Of a stretch of DNA of 29,936 nucleotides, positions 13,933 to 29,204 are shown one piece after another. The stretch is taken from IMG/VR virus record IMGVR_UViG_3300030101_004835, positions 134-30,069 of that record; one strand, 5' to 3'. The notes beneath the pieces were generated by a model. That model searched no databases, was not told where the DNA came from, and saw only the letters and a program-made list of their open reading frames with translations. The translations under genes and the position numbers were made by a program. This DNA comes from a virus. Within the stretch, counting starts at the first letter, position 1; the number at the start of each line of letters is the position of its first letter.

Positions 13933-14190
13933 ATGTCTAGAACTAAAGGTGGTTTAACAAAGTGGTTTAAACAAGATTGGGTAGATATTGGATCACCAAA
14001 AAAAGGTGGTGGTTATGCCAAGTGTGGCAGGACAAAGCAAAAGAAAGACGCCAAACGAAAGTACCCAAAATGTGTGCCTAGAGCAAAAGCAAACGCTATG
14101 ACTAAATCACAGATAAAATCTGCGGTGAAAAGAAAAAGAGCTAATCCAAAATCTAAAGTGTCCACATTCAAAAAAAGAAGGTCTAGTTGA
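13933..14190 (+). CDS. DUF6321-like small basic protein, 85 aa
   Basis: The product begins MSRTKGGLTKWFKQDWVDIG and continues SPKKGGGYAKCGR, KYPKCVPRAKANAMTKSQIK and KRKRANPK, ending FKKRRSS. GGL-x-x-WF-x-x-x-WVDI, a CGR knuckle, YPKCVPxAKA and a basic tail are the pattern I associate with DUF6321, often found beside DUF5872-like genes in phages. The two cysteine motifs (C33 in AKCGR and C48 in YPKCVP) could hold a metal. Its stop overlaps the portal start (TGATG). Confidence 0.72.
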   Translation: MSRTKGGLTKWFKQDWVDIGSPKKGGGYAKCGRTKQKKDAKRKYPKCVPRAKANAMTKSQIKSAVKRKRANPKSKVSTFKKRRSS

Positions 14191-16244
14191 TGGCTAAAAT
14201 GAACGACGAGCAACTATCCAATATTATCTCAAAAGAGATAAGGGACAGTTTAAATCATTATGACAGTGAGTTTTCTGCCGATAGATTACGTGCTTTGGAC
14301 ATGTATCTTGGTGAGCCTCTCGGAAATGAGGTGGAAGGAAGATCGCAAGTTGTGCTGACAGAGGTTGCTGATTGTGTGGAACAGATAATGCCCTCTCTGA
14401 TGAGGATCTTCACTGCAAGTGACAAATATGTGCGTTTCTCCCCTCGTACCGCTGAAGATGTTGAGAGGGCAGACCAAATCACAGACTACGTTAATTACAT
14501 AATTAACAACGATAATGATGGTTATAAAATATTTTATAATTGGTTTAAGGATGCTTTGTTATTCAGGCTCGGTGTTGTTAAATTTTATTATGATGAAACT
14601 GTTGTTGTTAAGGAAGAAGAGTACGAGGGTTTATCTCTTGATGAAGTGACTTTATTGGCAGCAAACCCGGATGTGGAGATTATTTCACAAGAAGAAAATT
14701 TTGCTCAAGAATTTACTTCACAGAATGAAGAAGTCGAGGTCGTACAAAGTTATAATATAAACGTTAAAATTAAAAAAAGATCCGGAAAGATCAGAATAGA
14801 AAACGTGCCGCCTGAGGAATTTTTGGTCAATAAAAGAGCCAAATCCTTAGAGGATGCATATTTTATCTGCCACAGAACAACCATGACTGTTTCAGATTTA
14901 GTTTCATTAGGTTATGACAAAGACCTCGTGGAAAGCTATGCCGGATATGACGAGCTTGATCAAGAAGAGGAAAGAAACAGACGCTTTGGCGATATAGAGT
15001 CCTCAGGCAATTATGACCCTGCAGATGACTCACAAAAAGAAGTGCCGGTTTTTGATTGTATCATTCGTGCAGATTATGACGGAGACGGAATTGCTGAGAT
15101 GCGACGTGTGCTTGCAGTCGGCTCAAGTGGTGATCAAATTCTAGAAAACGAAATCTGTGATTATATTCCATATGCGGTGGTATCTCCAATCATGATGCCA
15201 CACAGATTGGTTGGCAGATCAATATATGATTTAACTGAGGATCTTCAGGTTATTAAATCAACATTGATGAGACAGTACCTGGACAGCACTTATTTATCAG
15301 TTATGCCAAAGATCGTGGCGGTTGAGGGTCAGGTTAATTTAGATGATTTGATGAATAGTAGTGCCGGTTCAATAATAAGGACAAGAAATGCCGGTGCGGT
15401 GCAACCTCTAAACACATCGGGTGTTGGATCAGAAATTCAACCTTTGATGAAATATGTAGACGATATCAAAGAAAATAGAACTGGGATGAGCCGGGCATCT
15501 ATGGGATTGGATGCCAATGCTCTGCAAAGTAGTACCGCTAGTGCTATTTCCGCAACAGTTAAGGGTGCAGGTCAAAAGCTAGAATCATATGCACGTACAA
15601 TTGCAGAGACCGGAGTTAAGGATTTATTTAAAGGCATTTTGCACTTGGTGGCATTGCATCAGCAGCAAACAAGAATTGTAAGATTAAGAAACGAGTTTGT
15701 TGCAATTGATCCACGAGAGGCAGACTCTGAATTTGACGTGATAGTCAATGTTGGACTGGGCACTGCCGACGATGAGCAAAAGATCGCTTTTTTAACAAAT
15801 ATTGCATCGAAACAAGAGCAAATATTACAGACATTAGGAGCTGAAAATGCTATCTGCGATATATCACAATATACTAAAACTTTACGGGAAATTGCGGAAA
15901 TTGGTGGTTTCAAAGACACAGACAGTTTCTTCAACTCCCCGAGTCAGGTTAGAGCCAAAATTGAAGAGCAAAAAGCAAAAGCGGCAGAGCAAGGGCAGCA
16001 AGAAAACCCGGCAGTAATGTTGGAGATGCAGAAAGCTCAAGCAGACATTGAGGCTAAAAAATTAAAATTAGAAGCAGATATTCAATTGGCCAGAGAAAAA
16101 GCTCTAGCTGATATTGAACTGCAAAAAGAAAAAATGATGGCAGAGTTAAGTCTTAGACGTGAGGAATTGGCGGCAGAGGCAGAGCTTAGAGTCACAAAGG
16201 CGATAACGGATGCAGAAATCTCAACAAACCTCCCACGTCAATAG
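14190..16244 (+). CDS. Portal protein, P22-like
   Basis: The portal forms the ring at the unique capsid vertex through which DNA passes. The 684-residue length suits P22-like portals (P22 gp1 is 725). The N-terminal part has helices with DSLNHYDSEFSADRLRALDM, SQVVLTEVADCVEQIMPSLM and the wing region YFICHRTTMTVSDLVSLGYD. A central block PVFDCIIRADYDGDGIAEMR leads into RLVGRSIYDLTEDLQ and MRQYLDSTYLSV, both typical of the family. The C-terminal 90 residues are an A/E/K/Q-rich coiled coil, like the barrel of the podovirus portal. The ATG at 14190 is preferred to the TTG before it. Position after terminase supports the call. Confidence 0.9.
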   Translation: MAKMNDEQLSNIISKEIRDSLNHYDSEFSADRLRALDMYLGEPLGNEVEGRSQVVLTEVADCVEQIMPSLMRIFTASDKYVRFSPRTAEDVERADQITDYVNYIINNDNDGYKIFYNWFKDALLFRLGVVKFYYDETVVVKEEEYEGLSLDEVTLLAANPDVEIISQEENFAQEFTSQNEEVEVVQSYNINVKIKKRSGKIRIENVPPEEFLVNKRAKSLEDAYFICHRTTMTVSDLVSLGYDKDLVESYAGYDELDQEEERNRRFGDIESSGNYDPADDSQKEVPVFDCIIRADYDGDGIAEMRRVLAVGSSGDQILENEICDYIPYAVVSPIMMPHRLVGRSIYDLTEDLQVIKSTLMRQYLDSTYLSVMPKIVAVEGQVNLDDLMNSSAGSIIRTRNAGAVQPLNTSGVGSEIQPLMKYVDDIKENRTGMSRASMGLDANALQSSTASAISATVKGAGQKLESYARTIAETGVKDLFKGILHLVALHQQQTRIVRLRNEFVAIDPREADSEFDVIVNVGLGTADDEQKIAFLTNIASKQEQILQTLGAENAICDISQYTKTLREIAEIGGFKDTDSFFNSPSQVRAKIEEQKAKAAEQGQQENPAVMLEMQKAQADIEAKKLKLEADIQLAREKALADIELQKEKMMAELSLRREELAAEAELRVTKAITDAEISTNLPRQ

Positions 16245-16650
16245 AAACTTTGTTGGTGACGTTTTAAGTTTGGTTGCCTTGAGTGACTTTCATCATCACT
16301 GGAAGATGCACAAAATAAAAAGAGTTTTTGTTCCTCCTTTGCAAATTGGACAGTTTAGAATTTGGTATCATGACTCCCGACCAAGCGGTTTTTGTTCTTG
16401 GGCATGGGTTTCCGATGAAATTTTAAACAAATTACAAAATGAAAATTATTTGATGCAACCGGAAGATTGGCAAAGCGGCAGCAACTTATGGTTTGCAGAG
16501 TTCGTTGCACCTTTTGGAAAAGCAAGAGGAATGGTTAAGGATATGAGAAAATTTATCCTACACCAATATGGAGAAAATATAAAAGGACATTGGTTTAGAC
16601 CATCAAAGAAAAAGCAAGGTTCTGCGATGTCCGGCAAGAAAGCAGCATAG
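16210..16650 (+). CDS. HlyC-like toxin-activating lysine acyltransferase
   Basis: The 146-residue protein matches the HlyC/TAAT family along its length. GDVLSLVALSDFHHHWKM aligns with the HlyC block holding the catalytic histidine (H28 here, in SxxHxxW). RIWYHDSRPSGFCSWAWVSD aligns with the DNRPxxxCSWAxLS block. PEDWQSGSNLWFAEFVAPFG aligns with AEDWTSGDRKWFIDWIAPFG, in which HlyC Asp92 becomes Glu97. HlyC-type enzymes transfer fatty acids from acyl-ACP to internal lysines of RTX protoxins. No RTX protein is visible here; the neighbours are portal, an unknown Asn/Gly-rich protein and scaffold. A virion protein is a plausible substrate, but that is inference. It overlaps the portal by 35 bp. 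Confidence 0.85.
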   Translation: MQKSQQTSHVNRNFVGDVLSLVALSDFHHHWKMHKIKRVFVPPLQIGQFRIWYHDSRPSGFCSWAWVSDEILNKLQNENYLMQPEDWQSGSNLWFAEFVAPFGKARGMVKDMRKFILHQYGENIKGHWFRPSKKKQGSAMSGKKAA

Positions 16651-16658
16651 GAGAAGTC

Positions 16659-17624
16659 ATGGGTGAGAGCACAGATCCATCAGAAGAATCAGATGAGAGT
16701 ATTGAAGTATCTGAAAGATCTGATGATCAACAAACTGGAAACTTTGGTGGTGGTAACACAAATATAAGTGATCCTGCGGAAAGTCAGGGTTTTGCATCTC
16801 AAGAGGCAGCTAATAATTATAATCAGCAGCAAGAGGCACTTGCTCAAGCGGTGGCTCAAGGCATCAGTCCAACAAACGTAGGTGCAGTTGGTTTAGCCAA
16901 CACAGTCGGATTAGATGCATTTGGTGGTATTGGTGGAGCTCAAAGCAATCAGCAAACTGCCGGTATTCAGTCAAATCTTGGCGATATGCTTGGTGGTAGC
17001 ATGTTAGAAATCGACCCGGTCACTGGAGTCAATAACTTTGTTGCTCCTGACACTGTGCCACCTTTGGAATTAATGCAACCACAGAGATTTGACCCATTTA
17101 ACATGACAAATCAAGTCAATCAAATATTAAGAGATAGAGATGCTAGAGGTTTATATTCTCAAGTCACAAGAGATGATTTAGGTAATGTGACTGGTGTTTT
17201 TAATGATGCACCTATGTTTGGATTGTCTTTTTTACCAAATGTTACAACTTATACGGGTCTTGATGATAATCCTTACAATGAAGATCGATCAGGTATGGAT
17301 GGGAATGATGAGATTGTGCCGCCAATCACCAATCCTTTGACTGGTACTTCAAGGTGTCCTGATGGATATAAATTTGACGAGGATCTTCAGGCATGTCGTA
17401 TGGAAAACAAAAAGTCATTTAATAATCAGGCAACACCATCAGGGGAGTTGTTTTTTAGGCAAACTGCTCTAGACAATGCACCAAGCAACCTACCAGGTGG
17501 GTTTGATTTTGATGCAGCAAATAAACGTTTTACTCAGGGTTTTGCTTATAATCCTAGTTTTTATAATAGACCTATGAACACAACAGGTTTTACACCATTT
17601 AGCTCTTTTAAGCCTTTTAGCTGA
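16659..17624 (+). CDS. Asn/Gln/Gly-rich structural-region protein, 321 aa
   Basis: The product begins with an acidic Ser-rich stretch (MGESTDPSEESDESIEVSER), followed by low-complexity N/Q/G/A-rich sequence to about residue 120, then less biased sequence. C233 and C246 bracket CPDGYKFDEDLQAC, which resembles the short CPxGYxxd...C module seen in many marine phage proteins. The C-terminus is aromatic and proline-rich (FTPFSSFKPFS). All five lysines lie at residues 238, 251, 252, 289 and 318. It directly follows the acyltransferase and precedes the scaffold genes. I do not recognise a family. A minor head, internal or decoration protein is possible. Confidence 0.7.
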   Translation: MGESTDPSEESDESIEVSERSDDQQTGNFGGGNTNISDPAESQGFASQEAANNYNQQQEALAQAVAQGISPTNVGAVGLANTVGLDAFGGIGGAQSNQQTAGIQSNLGDMLGGSMLEIDPVTGVNNFVAPDTVPPLELMQPQRFDPFNMTNQVNQILRDRDARGLYSQVTRDDLGNVTGVFNDAPMFGLSFLPNVTTYTGLDDNPYNEDRSGMDGNDEIVPPITNPLTGTSRCPDGYKFDEDLQACRMENKKSFNNQATPSGELFFRQTALDNAPSNLPGGFDFDAANKRFTQGFAYNPSFYNRPMNTTGFTPFSSFKPFS

Positions 17625-17893
17625 TGACTGAAGATAAACTAATAAAGCAAACAGAAAGAGGCAGGAAAGCAGAGATCTTGTTAAAAGATGAACTGCTTGT
17701 TGAGGCATTTGAAGAGCTTAAAAAAGAATTTATAAGTGCATGGCAAGAAACCAAACTCGGTCAAAGTGAAGAACGAGAACGCTTATATAATCTCTGTCAA
17801 TCCTTAGACGCTTTGAAACAATATCTAGACAATATTGTTCAGAACGGGAGGTTTGCAGACAAACAACTTAACGAAATAAGAGGTATAAAATGA
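17624..17893 (+). CDS. Small helical head-region protein, 89 aa
   Basis: The product is helical and charged: RGRKAEILLKDELLVEAFEE, LKKEFISAWQETKLGQ, ERERLYNLCQSLDALKQYLD and NIVQNGRFADKQL. The RgrkAexLLkDxLLxEAFxxLkxefisaW pattern is familiar from small proteins placed before scaffold or capsid genes in many tailed phages, but no function has been shown that I know of. It is coupled at both ends (TGATG before, ATGA after), so it is co-produced with the scaffold. Confidence 0.7.
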   Translation: MTEDKLIKQTERGRKAEILLKDELLVEAFEELKKEFISAWQETKLGQSEERERLYNLCQSLDALKQYLDNIVQNGRFADKQLNEIRGIK

Positions 17894-18885
17894 ATGTAGA
17901 CTCGCAAGAGAGCAATCTAAGTATTTTAGAGGCAACTAATGAAATTCTGAAAGCATCCCAAGCAGAGGTAAAGCCGGAGGAAAATCAGGAAGAGCATCAA
18001 GAAAATACACAAGAAGTGGAGACCGCTGAAACTGATCAGACAGAAGAAACTGAAACTGAAGAAGTTGAAAGTGTAGCCAATGATCCTGAAGAAGAAACTG
18101 AGGAAATTGTAGAAGAGGAAACTGAAGAAGAAGCTGAAGAAGCTGAAGCTGATGAGCCATTATACACAGTTAAAGTAGATGGTGAGACAGAGCAAGTGAC
18201 CTTAGACGAACTCCGTAGTGGATATATGAGGGAGAAAACATTTCATCGTAGGATGAACAAACAGTCGCAAGACAAAAAGCAGCTTGACCAAGAGATGCAG
18301 CAATATAGGCAGACTCGTGATCAATATGCTCAAGGATTGCAACAGTTAGTAGCAGCTAATCAGAGGGAAGAACCAAACTGGCAGCAGCTAAAACAAGAAT
18401 TGAGTCCTGAGGAGTATTCTAGCAGGGTTGCAGATTATCAGGTTTATCAAATGAACATGTCAAAAGTTCAGGAGCAACAGAAGCAGATATCTCAAGAACA
18501 GCAACAAGAGGCAATGATTGGTTGGCAGAATTATGTCAGCAACGAGGCCAAAATGTTGATGGAAAAGATGCCGGAGTGGAATAAACAAAGGCAAGAAGAG
18601 ACTATCAAATATGCAAAAGATGTACTTGGATTTAATCAAGAGGAAATAAACAGTGCCGCAGATCACAGAATGATCATGGCCATTTATAAATCCATGCGAT
18701 TAGACAAGTTAATGGATAAAACACCTGATGTTAAAAAGAAAATCAAAGCAGCACCTAAGTCTACTAAGGCAGGAGTTCCAATTTCTAAAAAAGAAGTAGT
18801 TAACAATCAACGTAATAAATTGCGACAGAATTTTATGAAAAACCCATCGAAGGAAGCCGCAATAGAACTTTTAATGAATAGATAG
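17890..18885 (+). CDS. Scaffolding protein (putative)
   Basis: The 331-residue protein has a very acidic E/T-rich region at about residues 30-95 (many EEETEE runs). A short folded segment (LYTVKVDGETEQVTLDELRS, about 96-115) and MREKTFHRRMNKQSQDKKQL follow. Then comes a long Q/E-rich helical region to about 200, and a basic C-terminus (KKKIKAAPKSTKAG, then RNKLRQNFMKNP). Acidic N-terminus, coiled-coil centre and basic helical C-terminal coat-binding end, placed immediately before the major capsid gene, are the hallmarks of P22-like scaffolds. No protease gene or internal maturation domain is seen. Confidence 0.8.
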   Translation: MNVDSQESNLSILEATNEILKASQAEVKPEENQEEHQENTQEVETAETDQTEETETEEVESVANDPEEETEEIVEEETEEEAEEAEADEPLYTVKVDGETEQVTLDELRSGYMREKTFHRRMNKQSQDKKQLDQEMQQYRQTRDQYAQGLQQLVAANQREEPNWQQLKQELSPEEYSSRVADYQVYQMNMSKVQEQQKQISQEQQQEAMIGWQNYVSNEAKMLMEKMPEWNKQRQEETIKYAKDVLGFNQEEINSAADHRMIMAIYKSMRLDKLMDKTPDVKKKIKAAPKSTKAGVPISKKEVVNNQRNKLRQNFMKNPSKEAAIELLMNR

Positions 18886-18893
18886 AGGAAATC

Positions 18894-19847
18894 ATGGCAA
18901 CATACACAACTTCAAATGCCGTAGGAGAAAGAGAGTCTCTTGCGGATATCATTTATCGTTTGGACACAAGCGAGACACCGATTTTTTCAGCAGTTGAAAA
19001 GATCTCAACAAATGGCGTTTTCTATGAGTGGCAGACCCAAGAATTAGCGAGTGCGGCATCGGATAACCATGTCAATGAAGGTGCTGACGCAGCTTTGACA
19101 AATCCACAGGCTACAGTCAGGCTTGGTAATTATCACCAAATCTCGGTCAAAGACTATGCAATCTCAGGAACCCTTGAGCAAGTAGACAAAGCAGGTCGTG
19201 AACGTGAAACCGCCTACGTCAAAGTGTTAAAATCTTTAGAGCTAAGACGAGACATAGAGAAATCTATCGGTGACACTAATCAGGCAAGATCAGCATCTGA
19301 TCCAAGAAAATCTGCATCATTATTGACGTGGATGACAAACGGGGACAAACCATCTGACATGGGTTTTGCATCCGGAGATGGAACTGATACAGCCGATGTC
19401 ACAGGAACTGCTCGTGCATTAACACTTGCTCAAATTGAAACTGCAAAGCAGCAATCTTGGGAAGATGGCGGAAATGCATCTTTGTTAGTTTGTTCAGCAA
19501 CTAATAAAGCAAATATTTCTGACTTATCTCAGTCAGGCACTAATCTCGTGACAAACCAAGTTAACACAACACAAGGAACTGCTCCGACATTCGTTGGTGC
19601 GGTCTCTGTGATATTGACTGACTTTGGTGAGTTGCAATTAACACCATCAAGATTCATCGGAAACGACAGAGTTTTCTTAATTGATCCTGAGTTTGTATGT
19701 TTAGGGACTATTAATGGCAGAAACTTTGCCGAGAGTGATCTTGCAAAAACTGGTGATGCTGTAAAGACACAGATCGTCACAGAGTGGACTTTAGCAGTTA
19801 AGGCTCCTAAAGCTCATGCAGCAGTTTTTGGATTAAATGGTTCTTAA
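18894..19847 (+). CDS. Major capsid protein, SU10-like (DUF5309)
   Basis: The 317-residue product begins MATYTTSNAVGERESLADII and continues with YRLDTSETPIFSAVEK, FYEWQTQELASA, NYHQISVKDYAISGT and YVKVLKSLELRRDIEKSIGD. Later blocks are LTLAQIETAKQQSWEDGG and FVCLGTINGRNFAESDLAKT. These match the SU10-type (DUF5309) version of the HK97-fold coat protein. It follows the scaffold by eight bases with a GAGG ribosome-binding site, and a strong hairpin lies after it. No maturation cleavage site can be proposed. This should be the most abundant virion protein. Confidence 0.9.
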   Translation: MATYTTSNAVGERESLADIIYRLDTSETPIFSAVEKISTNGVFYEWQTQELASAASDNHVNEGADAALTNPQATVRLGNYHQISVKDYAISGTLEQVDKAGRERETAYVKVLKSLELRRDIEKSIGDTNQARSASDPRKSASLLTWMTNGDKPSDMGFASGDGTDTADVTGTARALTLAQIETAKQQSWEDGGNASLLVCSATNKANISDLSQSGTNLVTNQVNTTQGTAPTFVGAVSVILTDFGELQLTPSRFIGNDRVFLIDPEFVCLGTINGRNFAESDLAKTGDAVKTQIVTEWTLAVKAPKAHAAVFGLNGS

Positions 19848-23526: not shown

Positions 23527-23836
23527 TTTTAAAATATTACCTTACGAAGCAACAAATCCAAGAGATGTTTCGTTTGTGGTTAACAATATTATGAATGGCA
23601 AAATTAACTCAACCGGCAGTTTTACTTGCACGGCATCTGCGGCAACAACCGCAGTAACCGACCAAAGGGCAGGAAAATCAAGTGTCATATTATTGATGCC
23701 TTTGAGTGCAAATGCCGCAACTGAACAAGGGAATGGGACTATATTTGTTTCAACACGAGCAGATAAAAGTTTCACAGTAACACATGCAAACAACTCTCAG
23801 TCCGACAGAAACTTCGCATACGTCATTATTGGATGA
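23513..23836 (+). CDS. Small structural protein, 107 aa
   Basis: From TTG at 23513 the product begins MADANFKILPYEATNPRDVS, then NNIMNGKINSTGSFTCTASA, then VILLMPLSANAATEQG, then TVTHANNSQSDRNFAYVIIG. The NGKiNstGsFTLta...VTDxRvgxxSVIllMPxxanAA...SFTVTHaNnxqxDRxFxYViiG pattern is a beta-rich protein found in tail regions of many podoviruses. TTG was preferred because AAGG lies about nine bases before it and the family starts there. An in-frame ATG at 23495 and another at 23480 are alternatives. It overlaps the gp10-like gene by 14 bp. Confidence 0.72.
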   Translation: MADANFKILPYEATNPRDVSFVVNNIMNGKINSTGSFTCTASAATTAVTDQRAGKSSVILLMPLSANAATEQGNGTIFVSTRADKSFTVTHANNSQSDRNFAYVIIG

Positions 23837-24188
23837 ATGGGAAAGGTGCTCTAAGTGGCTTGAGGCAGCTTTGGTTTATTCGCATGGCACTCATACTTTA
23901 GAGGATGTTCTTGAGTCTGTGATGCGAGGAGATGCACAGTTTTGGCATTTCAAAGATGCAGCGGTTGTTACAGAATTGATGGATTATCCTCAAAAAAGAA
24001 TATTGAGGTACTGGTTAGCCGGTGGAAACCTTAAGACTCTTTTAAAAGTTGAGCCTGACATCAGGCATTGGTCTGCATTATGGGGATGTGTGGGCATTGA
24101 AATAATTGGTCGCAAAGGATGGCAAAAAGTCCTGAAAGGCTACAAGCAAACAAGTGTAATTTTAGTAAAGGATATGTATCATGGGTAA
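23784..24188 (+). CDS. Conserved tail-region protein, 134 aa
   Basis: The product contains DEWERCSKWLEAALVYSHGT (17-36), LESVMRGDAQFWHFKDAAVV, then LMDYPQKRILRYWLAGGNLK and a C-terminal IEIIGRKGWQKVLKGYKQTS. This W..C..WLe.AL, tHt.edv...i..GdaqfWh, yPqkrilryWLaGG, GRkGWqrvLkGY pattern occurs in podovirus structural regions in the slot where P22 has gp14. It may be an internal virion protein, but no biochemical function is known to me. A TTG at 23829 would remove 15 residues and nearly abolish the overlap with the previous gene, so the start is not certain. Confidence 0.68.
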   Translation: MQTTLSPTETSHTSLLDEWERCSKWLEAALVYSHGTHTLEDVLESVMRGDAQFWHFKDAAVVTELMDYPQKRILRYWLAGGNLKTLLKVEPDIRHWSALWGCVGIEIIGRKGWQKVLKGYKQTSVILVKDMYHG

Positions 24189-24918
24189 AGGTGGTGGCGG
24201 AGGTCAGCAAATTAACACATCTGTCAATGAGCCTCCTGCTTATGCTAAACCATTTCTTGAGTTTGGTGTTTCAGAGGCAAAGGAACTGTATGACAGTGAT
24301 GCACCTCAGTATTTTCCGGGAGCAACAACAGTAGGGTTTTCTCCTGAAAGCGAGATGGCTCTTGATCTACAAAGACAAAGAGCTCTTGATCCTATGAGTT
24401 TAACTGGCCAAACAAGAAGTGTACTGGAGCAAAATTTAACGGGTACTAATCCTTTGTTACAAGCATCTTTTAAACCGGTTATTGACACTGTGCAGTCACA
24501 GTTTGCAAAGGCCGGAAGATATGGATCAGGTGCAAATCAACAAGCTCTAGCCTCTGCTCTTGCTCCTGCAGCATTGAAAGCACAACAAGATGCACTTGCA
24601 AGAATACCATCAATGGGCAACCTGGACTTAAAACAATTAGCTCAAGTTGGTGGTGCAAGAGAGTCACAGGCTCAAGCGGAATTGCAGGACAATATAAACA
24701 GATTTAACTTTGAGCAGACGAGAGATCAACAAAAGCTCAGAGATTATTTAGCGGCAGTTAAGGGCGGAACGCTTGGATCACAAACAAGCAGACCGGTATT
24801 CAGGAACACCGCATCATCAGTTCTTGGTGGTGCAATGGGTGGAGCTCAACTTGGATCTTTGGCAGGAATTAATCCCCTATATGGAGCAATAGGTGGCGGA
24901 CTATTAGGATTATTTTAA
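24181..24918 (+). CDS. DNA ejection protein 1 (P22 gp7-like by position)
   Basis: The 245-residue product begins MGKGGGGGQQINTSVNEPPA, then has helical sequence (PFLEFGVSEAKELYDSDAPQ, FAKAGRYGSGANQQALAS, RIPSMGNLDLKQLAQVGG). Its C-terminal 40 residues are glycine/alanine-rich and hydrophobic (LGGAMGGAQLGSLAG), a membrane-active glycine-zipper-like end. Small helical proteins of this kind are stored in the podovirus head and ejected ahead of the DNA. Size is close to P22 gp7 (229), and it is first of three such genes. Confidence 0.75.
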   Translation: MGKGGGGGQQINTSVNEPPAYAKPFLEFGVSEAKELYDSDAPQYFPGATTVGFSPESEMALDLQRQRALDPMSLTGQTRSVLEQNLTGTNPLLQASFKPVIDTVQSQFAKAGRYGSGANQQALASALAPAALKAQQDALARIPSMGNLDLKQLAQVGGARESQAQAELQDNINRFNFEQTRDQQKLRDYLAAVKGGTLGSQTSRPVFRNTASSVLGGAMGGAQLGSLAGINPLYGAIGGGLLGLF

Positions 24919-26140: not shown

Positions 26141-28165
26141 GTGCCAACATTAGACATAGATGGTGTAGGAAAGGTCAAGGTTGATGATTCTGAATGGAAT
26201 GATCTCGACAGTGCCGGAAAACAAGAACTTGTTAATCGAATAGCAAGGGAAGGCACAACTTCTGAGCCTCAGGCAACTGATGACAGTTTTATTACTAATT
26301 TAGCTCGATCAGCTTTAGGTCAAGGATTGCTTTTAGGTTTTGGAGATGAGGCAGAGGCAGGAGTAAGATCTTTGTTATCTGACGAAACTTATGATGATGC
26401 CTTAAAAGATGTCAGAGGAGAACTAAAAGGTTTTAAAAAAGAAAATCCCGGAACTGCACTTGCAGCAGAACTTGGAGGTGGTCTTGTTACTGGTGGTGGT
26501 TTAGGTCTTTTAGGTGCAGGAACAAGGCTCGGTAAATCAATCCTGCAAAGAACTGGTGTCACTGGCTTAGGAGCAGCAACCGGTGCAACAGAAGGTGCTA
26601 TTGCAGGAGCAGGGACTACAGATGGAGATCTTGGAGACAGAGCATTTGGTTCGCTAGTAGGCGGAACATTAGGCGGCACTCTTGGAGCAACTGTCCCGGC
26701 AGCGGTTTCAATTGGAAAAGACGTAATTGGAAAAGCAACCCTACCTTTCAGAGGCACTCAAGCGATTGAAGATGCGGCAGGGCGGAAAGTAGTCCAAGCC
26801 ATTGAAAAATCAGGAAAATCTGTCGAGGATGTTCAAAAAGGTTTAGATGAAGGTATAGTTGCAAATCAGATGATCGCTGACGTTGGAACTGGCACTCAAA
26901 GATTAGGAAGAGGATCTGCAGCGGTTTCAGGAGAAGGTCAGGACATAGCGGCCAAAGCTCTTGACGAAAGACAATTAGCTCTTGGAGATGAAATTGCTGA
27001 TGATATCAATAAAGTTTTTGGTGTAAATCAATCAAGTGCTGACGTTATTGATGATATTGTTGATCGTCAAAAGATTAATGCAGCAGATGACTATAAAAAA
27101 GCATTTTTTGAAACTCCTGATGAAGTGCCTTTTATGAGAGATCCTGATGGAAGTGGATTAACAACTCGTGATTTACCACCAATGGAAAGGTCTGCAGGAG
27201 TTGATGAATTTAAAGATTTTTTTAAACTTCCAATATTTAAACAAGCATATAATAAGGCTAAAACCCTTGCATCTTTACAAGGAGAAAAACTCCCAACTCT
27301 TAAAAACTTATTAAAAGATGAAAAAACATCTGATGTGATTACTGTCAAACAATTACATTATATCAAGATGGGTCTTGATGAGTTTATTGATGTTGGTAAA
27401 AGACAAGGCTCACTTGGAAAGCAAACACAAAGAGAATTATTGCAAAAAAGACAATCATTTATTGATCAAGTTGATGATGTTTCAAATGGTTTTTATAAAA
27501 AAGCAAATGCAAAGTTTGCAGGGGATATGAGATTAAGAGAGGCAGTGGAGTTGGGGGGTGATTTTACAAAATCAACACCTGACCAAATAGAGAGAATAAT
27601 CAAAAAATTATCTCCAAGTGAAAAGCAAGGTTATTTAGTTGGTGTTGCTGACTCAATTCGAAACCAAGCTGACTCTGCAAAGGATATGGCAAACGTTGCC
27701 GACAGGTTATTTGGAACTCCAAAGAAAAGAAAACAACTTGAGGCATTGTTTCCATCTAAAAAAGCATTTTCTCAATTCGAGAAACGTATGAAAGCAAGGA
27801 TTAACCAGGTGAAAACAAGAACTACAGTCAATGTAGGTTCAAGGACTGCTCCGCTTGGCGAGGATATAGCTGATGTGAAAGGTGGTCTTGGTATGTTCTT
27901 AACCGGCATTCCAAGCGTAAGGGATATTGCAGGAACTGCGGTTGGCCTCGCAAAGGGAACACCTGATGCGGTTTCTTCAAGAATATCAAGGGATTTATTT
28001 GAAACAGATGCAATCAAGCAAAGAGAAACTTTGGCAAGATTAGCAAGGCTAAGAGATGAAATGATCAAGTCTAGAAATAGATCCGGAAACATTACTGGTT
28101 TATTCAGTGGTGGTTCAGGTGCCTTATTAGGCGGAAGTGCAGGAAGGAATATCAACGATGGCTAA
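26141..28165 (+). CDS. DNA ejection protein 3 (P22 gp16-like by position)
   Basis: The 674-residue product begins with MPTLDIDGVGKVKVDDSEWN, a short beta segment, followed by helix KQELVNRIAREG. A Gly/Ala-rich hydrophobic stretch at about residues 100-195 (GTALAAELGGGLVTGGGLGL, TGATEGAIAGAGTTDG and so on) could insert in a membrane. The remainder is helical and charged. P22 gp16 has 609 residues and lies third in the ejection set. The start is GTG at 26141 with GGAG upstream; no earlier start is available. The C-terminus overlaps the fibre start by eight bases. Confidence 0.72.
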   Translation: MPTLDIDGVGKVKVDDSEWNDLDSAGKQELVNRIAREGTTSEPQATDDSFITNLARSALGQGLLLGFGDEAEAGVRSLLSDETYDDALKDVRGELKGFKKENPGTALAAELGGGLVTGGGLGLLGAGTRLGKSILQRTGVTGLGAATGATEGAIAGAGTTDGDLGDRAFGSLVGGTLGGTLGATVPAAVSIGKDVIGKATLPFRGTQAIEDAAGRKVVQAIEKSGKSVEDVQKGLDEGIVANQMIADVGTGTQRLGRGSAAVSGEGQDIAAKALDERQLALGDEIADDINKVFGVNQSSADVIDDIVDRQKINAADDYKKAFFETPDEVPFMRDPDGSGLTTRDLPPMERSAGVDEFKDFFKLPIFKQAYNKAKTLASLQGEKLPTLKNLLKDEKTSDVITVKQLHYIKMGLDEFIDVGKRQGSLGKQTQRELLQKRQSFIDQVDDVSNGFYKKANAKFAGDMRLREAVELGGDFTKSTPDQIERIIKKLSPSEKQGYLVGVADSIRNQADSAKDMANVADRLFGTPKKRKQLEALFPSKKAFSQFEKRMKARINQVKTRTTVNVGSRTAPLGEDIADVKGGLGMFLTGIPSVRDIAGTAVGLAKGTPDAVSSRISRDLFETDAIKQRETLARLARLRDEMIKSRNRSGNITGLFSGGSGALLGGSAGRNINDG

Positions 28166-29204
28166 TAATATCACAGAATACAATGCCACACCCGGCTCAA
28201 ACACAACGATTGACTCTATTTCAATAGACGAGGGCATGGCCGCATCAAACGTGAACAATGCTATTAGGAGCCTTATGAGTCATTTGAAGAACGTAGACAC
28301 TGGCTCTCAGGCACTAACTGCTTTGTCGGTTACTGGTGCTTTATCATGTGGTGCTTTTACAAGTAATGGCATAGACGATAATGCTGATGCTGTGGCTTTG
28401 ACCATTGATAATGATGAAAAAGTCCTGATTGGTAAAACTAGTTCTAATTTAAGTACTGCTGGGTCAGAATTTGCTTCTGATGGCTTAGTAAGATTTACTC
28501 GTTCTAATGTAAATGCTGTAGTTAATTTTAATAAATTAAATAATGATGGCGATATTGTTTCTTTCCGTAAAGATGACACTCAAATAGGAAGTGTTGGCAC
28601 TTTAAGTAACCAACTTACAATAGGTAGAGGTGGGGTAGGTTTGTTATTTGATAATGTTACTTCTGATGCTATAGAACCCCACAGTATGTCAAGTAATGCA
28701 ATAAGAAGTGATGCAATAGATTTAGGTACATCATCATCACGTTTTAAAGACCTCTATCTATCAGGTGGTGTATTCTTAGGTGGTACTGGTTCAGCTAATC
28801 AGATCTCGGATTATGAAGAAGGAAATTGGACTCCTGCCTTTGATAGTGGTACAGGTGGTTATAATGGTAGTGCTTTGGAAAGTATAACTGCTTTTTATAG
28901 AAAAATTGGAAATATGGTTTTTTTATCTGCTTCTTTTAAAGTAACAGGAGGAAGTAATGTATCTTCAGGAGATTCTTTAGAGTTTACTGGACAGCCTTTT
29001 ACTCCTAATTCATCAATATTTCAGTCTAGGATGGGTGTAAGTTCTATTAATCAATCTGTGGGTTCAGGAACAATGGCAGTTGGTGTGGTGGCATCCACTA
29101 GCAGTAATCCGGGTTCAATGAGAGCTATGATAGCAGAGAAAAGTGGAACTGTTTCTGCAGGAACAGCTTTTACTATTATAAATATAAGTTATCCAACGAG
29201 TTAA
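28158..29204 (+). CDS. Tail fibre protein 1
   Basis: The 348-residue product has an N-terminal attachment domain (MANNITEYNATPGSNTTIDS, then NNAIRSLMSHLKN, to about residue 46). A beta-repeat shaft follows with DAVALTIDNDEKVLIG, FTRSNVNAVVNFNKLNND, IRSDAIDLGTSSSRFKDLYL. The C-terminal receptor-type domain begins at the DYEEGNWTPAFDSG signature (about 218-231), widely seen in marine phage fibres. The N-terminal domain is duplicated in the next fibre gene (29475). It probably recognises the host surface. The ATG at 28158 is chosen since it begins the shared N-terminal domain; an in-frame ATG seven residues earlier exists. Confidence 0.83.
   Translation: MANNITEYNATPGSNTTIDSISIDEGMAASNVNNAIRSLMSHLKNVDTGSQALTALSVTGALSCGAFTSNGIDDNADAVALTIDNDEKVLIGKTSSNLSTAGSEFASDGLVRFTRSNVNAVVNFNKLNNDGDIVSFRKDDTQIGSVGTLSNQLTIGRGGVGLLFDNVTSDAIEPHSMSSNAIRSDAIDLGTSSSRFKDLYLSGGVFLGGTGSANQISDYEEGNWTPAFDSGTGGYNGSALESITAFYRKIGNMVFLSASFKVTGGSNVSSGDSLEFTGQPFTPNSSIFQSRMGVSSINQSVGSGTMAVGVVASTSSNPGSMRAMIAEKSGTVSAGTAFTIINISYPTS

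What the first reader, a model, noticed from the sequence alone, without database searches (positions are those of the whole stretch)
16210..16650. HlyC-like toxin-activating acyltransferase embedded in the head-gene cluster
The 146-residue protein keeps the main HlyC blocks (SDFHHHW, SRPSGFCSWA, EDW.SG..WF..FVAPFG), with H28 at the catalytic histidine position and Glu97 replacing HlyC Asp92. Known HlyC enzymes acylate lysines of RTX protoxins and sit beside the toxin gene. Here there is no RTX gene. The enzyme is between portal and scaffold, overlapping the portal by 35 bp, so it is made during virion assembly. A fatty-acylated virion or internal protein, perhaps helping membrane penetration during DNA ejection, would be a new use of the family.
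Basis: partly seen in the sequence, partly recalled or inferred. Interest (0 to 1): 0.78.

Follow-up and report, generated by a model that had tools for sequence, protein, structure and literature searches.

The report
Phage enzyme paired with virion-protein N-terminus
A marine phage carries a relative of the enzyme that fats up bacterial haemolysins, and comparison with hundreds of other phages indicates that it modifies the very beginning (probably the exposed N-terminal glycine) of the virion protein encoded by the next gene, a use of this enzyme family that I found described nowhere.

Summary
ORF 16210-16650 is an HlyC/TAAT-family protein (Pfam PF02794, E 2.8e-28; AlphaFold model closest to ApxC 4whn, TM 0.72), overlaps the portal gene by 35 bp, keeps Ser25 and His28, and has Glu97 at the HlyC Asp92 position. 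No RTX gene is present. It is not unique: close relatives sit in the same slot in 29 viral contigs, and named phages (HTVC103P, 104P, 111P, 112P, 026P, CRP-235) already carry such annotations. What appears new is the coupling to the NEXT gene. In several unrelated virion-gene contexts the protein after HlyC begins Met-Gly, or has a short leader ending in a motif like CFGS. When HlyC is absent, or replaced by a GNAT acetyltransferase, the N-terminus changes: tail protein J has Gly2 with HlyC (40/40) and Cys2 with GNAT (27/28); gp25 has an extra N-terminal region starting MGS only with HlyC; and in one near-minimal pair GDSP becomes CGGG while the rest stays 82% identical. I infer that the enzyme acylates the N-terminus of p321 (16659-17624), most likely on Gly2 after Met removal, rather than a lysine. 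The acyl group, the activity and the role in infection are untested.

The parts
16210..16650 (+). HlyC/TAAT-family acyltransferase (146 aa); S25, H28, E97 at the active-site columns
   Evidence: Pfam PF02794 E 2.8e-28; PDB 4whn by sequence and by fold, TM 0.72; conservation
16659..17624 (+). p321, predicted substrate: begins Met-Gly-Glu-Ser, acidic and Ser-rich, lysine-free until residue 238; conserved C-terminal CPDGY..FDEDLQACR region
   Evidence: Ribosome-binding site taGGAGaagtcATG directly after the HlyC stop; swapped together with HlyC in L112; N-terminus covaries with HlyC presence; lysine positions
16659..16664 (+). Met1-Gly2 codons; Gly2 is the predicted acylation site after Met removal
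   Evidence: Gly2 conserved across HlyC-paired proteins of this class; inference
14187..16244 (+). portal protein, its 3' end overlaps HlyC by 35 bp
   Evidence: phrog_1216 E 1.2e-150
17624..17893 (+). p89, small conserved protein, unknown
   Evidence: phrog_8161; 100% identical in L112 while HlyC and the p321 N-terminal part are swapped
17890..18885 (+). head scaffolding protein
   Evidence: phrog_3927 E 1.6e-44
23784..24188 (+). p134, second acyltransferase-like protein (predicted GNAT fold), overlapping the next gene by 8 bp
   Evidence: AF2 pLDDT 75; top Foldseek hits are GNATs although E-values are weak; phrog_22172/7642 unknown
24181..24918 (+). p245, begins MGKGGGGG; DNA-ejection-protein match; second enzyme-virion-protein pair in the same phage
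   Evidence: phrog_4287 DNA ejection protein E 3.3e-14; relatives begin MGKGGGG, MSKGGG or MSGGKGG

Best explanation
The gene encodes a HlyC-family acyltransferase with an intact-looking active site, made from the same operon as, and immediately before, its substrate p321. SHOWN by comparison: the enzyme and the N-terminal part of the next virion protein behave as one module. They are exchanged together, and the first residues of that protein depend on whether the slot holds HlyC (Met-Gly or a leader), a GNAT (often Met-Cys) or nothing. INFERRED: host methionine aminopeptidase removes Met1; the enzyme uses Glu97 to activate the alpha-amine of Gly2, while His28 protonates the leaving group (the direct-attack scheme published for TAATs); and it transfers an acyl chain, probably from acyl-ACP, giving an N-acyl-glycine virion protein before or during head assembly. 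GUESSED: the acyl group helps the virion protein engage a membrane or another virion component.
For: (1) Family, fold and active site; acid column always D or E in 117 distinct phage sequences. (2) Same slot and order in all close relatives. In portal relatives HlyC is patchy (36 with, 60 without; 6 changes on the portal tree), while p321-like proteins persist. (3) L112: portal 99%, p89 100% and scaffold 99% identical to the window, but divergence starts sharply at the HlyC start and ends inside p321. (4) p321 N-termini: all 25 distinct HlyC-paired proteins start MG or carry a leader with a CFG-type motif, versus 8 of 46 without HlyC. (5) Second portal family: HlyC-paired proteins start MGDSP or MGGDS (16 loci) and GNAT-paired ones start MCGGG (4 loci). 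L072 and L281 differ at residues 2-5 (GDSP/CGGG) yet are 82.5% identical over the rest. With no enzyme (L334, L341) the N-terminal region is missing. (6) Baseplate gp25: the 8 loci with HlyC have an N-terminal extension starting MGS(G/N)IG; the 76 without lack it wherever the start could be read. (7) Tail protein J: HlyC with Gly2 in 40/40, GNAT with Cys2 in 27/28. (8) CRP-235 and L088: next protein starts MGGGG; relatives with a different enzyme have a leader ending FGGGG or FKGGGG. (9) Residue-2 Gly background: 3 of 93 annotated phage genes; among the window genes listed only the two directly after acyltransferase-like genes start MG. (10) No shared lysine in p321.
Against: No biochemistry exists. 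Many phage HlyC relatives (acid = D) precede a protein with a leader (MRFQIKK..CFGS, MVRSYLIENRIC..) that has no N-terminal glycine unless it is cut; L112, a near-twin of the window outside this cassette, is of that kind. The E97-MG / D97-leader association is tight in raw counts (55 against 55, 7 exceptions) but rests on few independent switches and is not significant on the tree. Some homologues start MG without any adjacent enzyme (C72C1 MGFGGG; HTVC202P and L375 tail J), and leader forms occur without HlyC (L139, L152, L160). HTVC104P-type members sit in an early region before a coiled-coil gene starting MSDKD and lack the catalytic His. The catalytic His is Tyr, Phe or Trp in many clades. 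The HlyC and GNAT forms of tail J are largely separate lineages, so 40/40 and 27/28 are few evolutionary events. The Fisher test ignores relatedness.
Confidence: 0.52

Rival explanations
1. Canonical TAAT chemistry: the enzyme acylates one or more internal lysines of p321 (or of another virion protein), and the N-terminal region only serves as the recognition tag.
For: All characterised family members (HlyC, CyaC, ApxC, CdiC) act on lysine (PMC8510554). p321 has 5 lysines, all in its C-terminal 90 residues, and most close relatives also have lysines near the CPDGY region. CdiC target lysines are likewise in poorly conserved contexts (PMC8510554).
Against: No lysine is conserved across HlyC-paired p321 proteins; L023 has none in the C-terminal part, L147 and L171 none in the leader. 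Residue 2 itself switches with the enzyme type while the rest of the protein stays the same.
Confidence: 0.22
2. The enzyme acts on something else (host protein or another phage protein); its coupling to p321 is hitch-hiking in a recombination hot spot between portal and scaffold.
For: The portal-scaffold interval is clearly a swap site; HTVC104P-type members lie in an early region.
Against: Coupling to the next gene's N-terminus recurs in baseplate gp25, tail J, a roseophage structural gene and two portal families, where local hot spots would have to coincide.
Confidence: 0.12
3. N-terminal acetylation rather than fatty acylation: the enzyme has drifted to a short acyl donor, like the GNATs that replace it.
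For: GNAT enzymes occupy the same slot in homologous phages and HlyC itself is GNAT-like in fold.
Against: GNAT slots prefer Met-Cys rather than Met-Gly, so the two enzymes do not look interchangeable. Known HlyC enzymes use long acyl-ACP (PMC8510554).
Confidence: 0.09
4. The protein is no longer an enzyme but a dedicated chaperone or assembly factor that binds the N-terminus of the next protein.
For: The catalytic His is replaced by Tyr, Phe or Trp in several phage clades.
Against: The acid is never lost in 117 sequences; His-to-Ala mutants of ApxC and CdiC keep some activity, so loss of His does not mean loss of function (PMC8510554); the window member keeps both residues.
Confidence: 0.05

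Closest known systems
HlyC / ApxC / CyaC toxin-activating acyltransferases (Pfam PF02794, PDB 4whn)
   Same: Sequence profile, fold, position immediately upstream of the presumed substrate gene, Ser/His/acid columns
   Different: No RTX protoxin; shorter; Glu instead of Asp; target predicted to be an N-terminal glycine of a virion protein instead of internal lysines
CdiC acyltransferase of class IV contact-dependent inhibition (PMC8510554)
   Same: HlyC homologue outside RTX systems whose adjacent partner protein carries the modified residue; comparative evidence of the same kind (partner residue lost when the enzyme is missing)
   Different: CdiC puts 3-hydroxydecanoate on Lys1467 of a receptor-binding domain of a bacterial effector; here a phage virion protein and, by inference, its N-terminus
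HlyC-annotated genes of Pelagibacter phages HTVC103P, 104P, 111P, 112P, 026P and Roseobacter phage CRP-235
   Same: Same family by annotation or profile; in 111P, 112P, 026P and CRP-235 directly upstream of a virion gene starting MGG
   Different: Different virion partner (tail J or gp29-type); annotated only, no function proposed in the papers found
T7 gp13 next to internal virion protein gp14
   Same: Small GNAT-type protein directly upstream of a virion protein, gp14, which starts MC; a GNAT next to internal virion proteins was likened to T7 gp13 in cobaviruses (PMC6775973)
   Different: Not HlyC family; chemistry unknown
Eukaryotic N-myristoyltransferase
   Same: Works-like analogy only: GNAT-type fold, acyl transfer to N-terminal glycine after Met removal (established knowledge)
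   Different: Not homologous at profile level to the window protein; acyl-CoA donor; not a member

Membership tests
HlyC / TAAT family (PF02794) | Significant match to the family profile | tested here: met
   98.8 bits against cut-off 25, E 2.8e-28
HlyC / TAAT family (PF02794) | ApxC-like GNAT-related fold | tested here: met
   AF2 pLDDT 88.5; Foldseek top hits 4whn chains, E about 1e-10, TM 0.72
HlyC / TAAT family (PF02794) | Catalytic His (HlyC His23 / ApxC His24) | tested here: met
   H28 in the aligned column, invariant in alignment A2 of the closest relatives plus CRP-235 but Tyr/Phe/Trp in other phage clades
HlyC / TAAT family (PF02794) | Catalytic Asp (HlyC Asp92 / ApxC Asp93) | tested here: inconclusive
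   Glu97 in that column; an acid is kept in all 117 phage sequences; activity of Glu not measured
HlyC / TAAT family (PF02794) | Encoded next to an RTX protoxin with acylated lysines | tested here: not met
   No RTX repeats in the window; next gene is p321. CdiC shows that this feature is not needed for family membership (PMC8510554)
HlyC / TAAT family (PF02794) | Acyl-ACP-dependent acyl transfer | not testable with these tools
   Needs biochemistry
N-terminal-glycine acyltransferase (works like NMT) | Substrate with Gly exposed after Met removal | tested here: met
   p321 starts MGES with a good ribosome-binding site; Gly2 shared by HlyC-paired proteins of several families; not met in the D97/leader clades
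N-terminal-glycine acyltransferase (works like NMT) | Transfer to the alpha-amine | not testable with these tools
   Needs MS
NMT (Pfam NMT models) | Profile match | tested here: not met
   Only HlyC reported for the window protein at E up to 10

The most novel reading that the evidence does not exclude
Tailed phages carry a recurrent two-gene module: an acyltransferase (HlyC type or GNAT type) directly upstream of, and dedicated to, one virion protein, whose first residues it modifies (HlyC on Gly2, GNAT on Cys2). The module is swapped as a unit between heads, tail tips and baseplates and includes T7 gp13-gp14, so N-terminal acylation of virion proteins would be a widespread but overlooked step in making infectious phage particles.
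Probability: 0.33. Interest if true: 0.88.

Novelty: new variant of a known kind. Interest (0 to 1): 0.74.

Why it matters
It gives a concrete, testable substrate and site for a class of phage genes so far labelled toxin-activating acyltransferase or acetyltransferase without a role. If true, the HlyC family modifies an alpha-amine as well as lysines, prokaryotes gain a myristoylation-like modification of virus particles, and the long unclear role of small GNATs such as T7 gp13 next to ejection proteins becomes directly testable.

Tried and rejected
Conserved lysine in p321 as the site: none found. Conserved Cys of the CFGS leader as the site: replaced by Arg, Ala or other residues in several clades (L304 RIRFDSD, L094 IAFGGD, L134 HLFGSD), so not general. 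Glu97 as a proven specificity switch: raw association strong, but only 4 supported independent pairs and a sign test that cannot reach significance. NCBIfam gave no match. p321 has no informative family: nothing in PHROGs, only sub-threshold CBM_14 and OMP matches in Pfam. p321 has no homologue detected in 50,697 phage records. Host identification through genomes: a single hit, an 8 kb contig of an unnamed MAG with the same phage operon, uninformative. No paper found that discusses HlyC in phages or acylated phage virion proteins.

Full report
OBSERVATION. The ORF at 16210-16650 encodes a 146-residue protein that matches Pfam HlyC at E 2.8e-28 and the ApxC structure 4whn by sequence at E 1.3e-12. 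An AlphaFold model built from 39 phage sequences has mean pLDDT 88.5. Its best PDB matches are the three ApxC chains (E about 1e-10, TM 0.72), followed by GNAT-type folds. Ser25 and His28 are invariant among the closest relatives plus CRP-235 in alignment A2. The acid column is Glu in the window, and Asp or Glu in every one of 117 distinct phage sequences whose next gene could be read. No RTX repeat occurs in the window.

SURROUNDINGS. The window is 29.9 kb of a 30,069-base virus record of a phage with an integrase. Twenty-nine viral contigs carry close relatives, always in the same order where the contig extends far enough. Searching by portal instead shows that HlyC is optional: on a portal tree of 96 rows, 36 have HlyC, 58 have none and 2 have a GNAT in the slot, needing 6 changes of HlyC presence. 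Phage C72C1 (portal 62% identical) has the operon without the enzyme.

THE PARTNER. Contig L112 has portal 99%, p89 100% and scaffold 99% identical to the window, but identity falls at the start of HlyC and recovers inside p321. HlyC and the N-terminal part of p321 are therefore exchanged together. p321 starts Met-Gly-Glu-Ser behind a good ribosome-binding site that overlaps the HlyC stop, and has no lysine until residue 238. Among 25 distinct HlyC-paired p321 proteins every one either starts Met-Gly or has a short leader ending in a CFG-type motif; without HlyC this holds for 8 of 46, and 17 of those 46 carry a different N-terminal block (..H.LAYI..) never seen with HlyC.

NATURAL EXPERIMENTS IN OTHER PHAGES. 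(a) A second portal family: proteins after HlyC start MGDSP or MGGDS (16 loci) and proteins after a GNAT start MCGGG (4 loci). L072 and L281 differ at residues 2-5 yet are 82.5% identical afterwards. Where no enzyme is present (L334, L341) the following protein lacks that N-terminal region. Another HlyC subclade in this family pairs with a leader form MVRSYLIENRIC. (b) T4-type baseplate gp25: the 8 loci with HlyC have a low-complexity N-terminal extension starting MGSGIG or MGSNIG; the 76 loci without HlyC lack it wherever the start codon could be read. (c) Tail protein J: Gly2 with HlyC in 40 of 40, Cys2 with GNAT in 27 of 28. Isolated phages HTVC111P and HTVC026P have HlyC and J starting MGG; HTVC202P lacks the enzyme and starts MGIG. 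(d) CRP-235 and L088: HlyC then MGGGG; sister phages CRP-3, CRP-212 and CRP-738 have another enzyme-like gene there and a leader before FGGGG or FKGGGG. Gly at residue 2 occurs in 3 of 93 other annotated genes.

MECHANISM. For TAATs, a direct-attack mechanism with Asp as base and His as acid has been argued, and His mutants keep residual activity (PMC8510554). This fits the phage family, where the acid is never lost but His is sometimes replaced. I infer that Glu97 activates the alpha-amine of Gly2 of p321. Raw counts link Glu at this site to Met-Gly partners (55 with Glu, 7 with Asp) and Asp to leader or other partners (55 of 55), but few independent switches underlie this and it is not significant on the tree. 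Fatty-acyl chain, donor and role in infection are inference.

SECOND PAIR. The window holds a second such pair: p134 (23784-24188), predicted GNAT-like, overlapping p245 (24181-24918), which starts MGKGGGGG and matches a DNA ejection protein family. T7 gp13-gp14 has the same layout, and gp14 starts MC.

KNOWN AND NEW. HlyC annotations in marine phages exist in sequence records, and CdiC is a known non-RTX member. I found no paper on the function of phage HlyC genes (open-access text only). The new element is the enzyme-N-terminus coupling, which I call a new variant of a known kind.

Noticed in passing
window 23784-24188 and 24181-24918: Second acyltransferase-like/virion pair: GNAT-like p134 overlapping p245 (MGKGGGGG, DNA ejection protein match).
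   Followed up: partly
L130:4622-5077 and L138:7992-8447: A GNAT acetyltransferase (phrog_1249) replaces HlyC between portal and the p321-like protein, which then has a leader ending TCFCGGGSDDDD.
   Followed up: partly
L391-L424 (tail J loci): GNAT in the slot before tail protein J, with J starting Met-Cys; one of these GNATs gives a weak NMT Pfam hit (E 0.13, below cut-off).
   Followed up: partly
L427 (T7 26500-29000): T7 gp13 directly precedes gp14, which starts MCWAAAIP: same layout as the GNAT/Met-Cys pairs.
   Followed up: partly
L032 (HTVC104P), L104, L106: HlyC-family members in an early, non-structural region with Trp at the catalytic His column, followed by a coiled-coil gene starting MSDKD or MSEKD; the exception to the rule.
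   Followed up: no
L110:6383 onward: HlyC followed by a protein of at least 1984 aa with a leader (..IAYGGDESGGG) and a LysM domain.
   Followed up: no
L139, L152, L160: p321-like proteins with a CNFGGG leader but no enzyme detected upstream.
   Followed up: no
window 18894-19847 against L112: The 5' part of the major head gene also diverges between otherwise near-identical phages, a second swap boundary.
   Followed up: no
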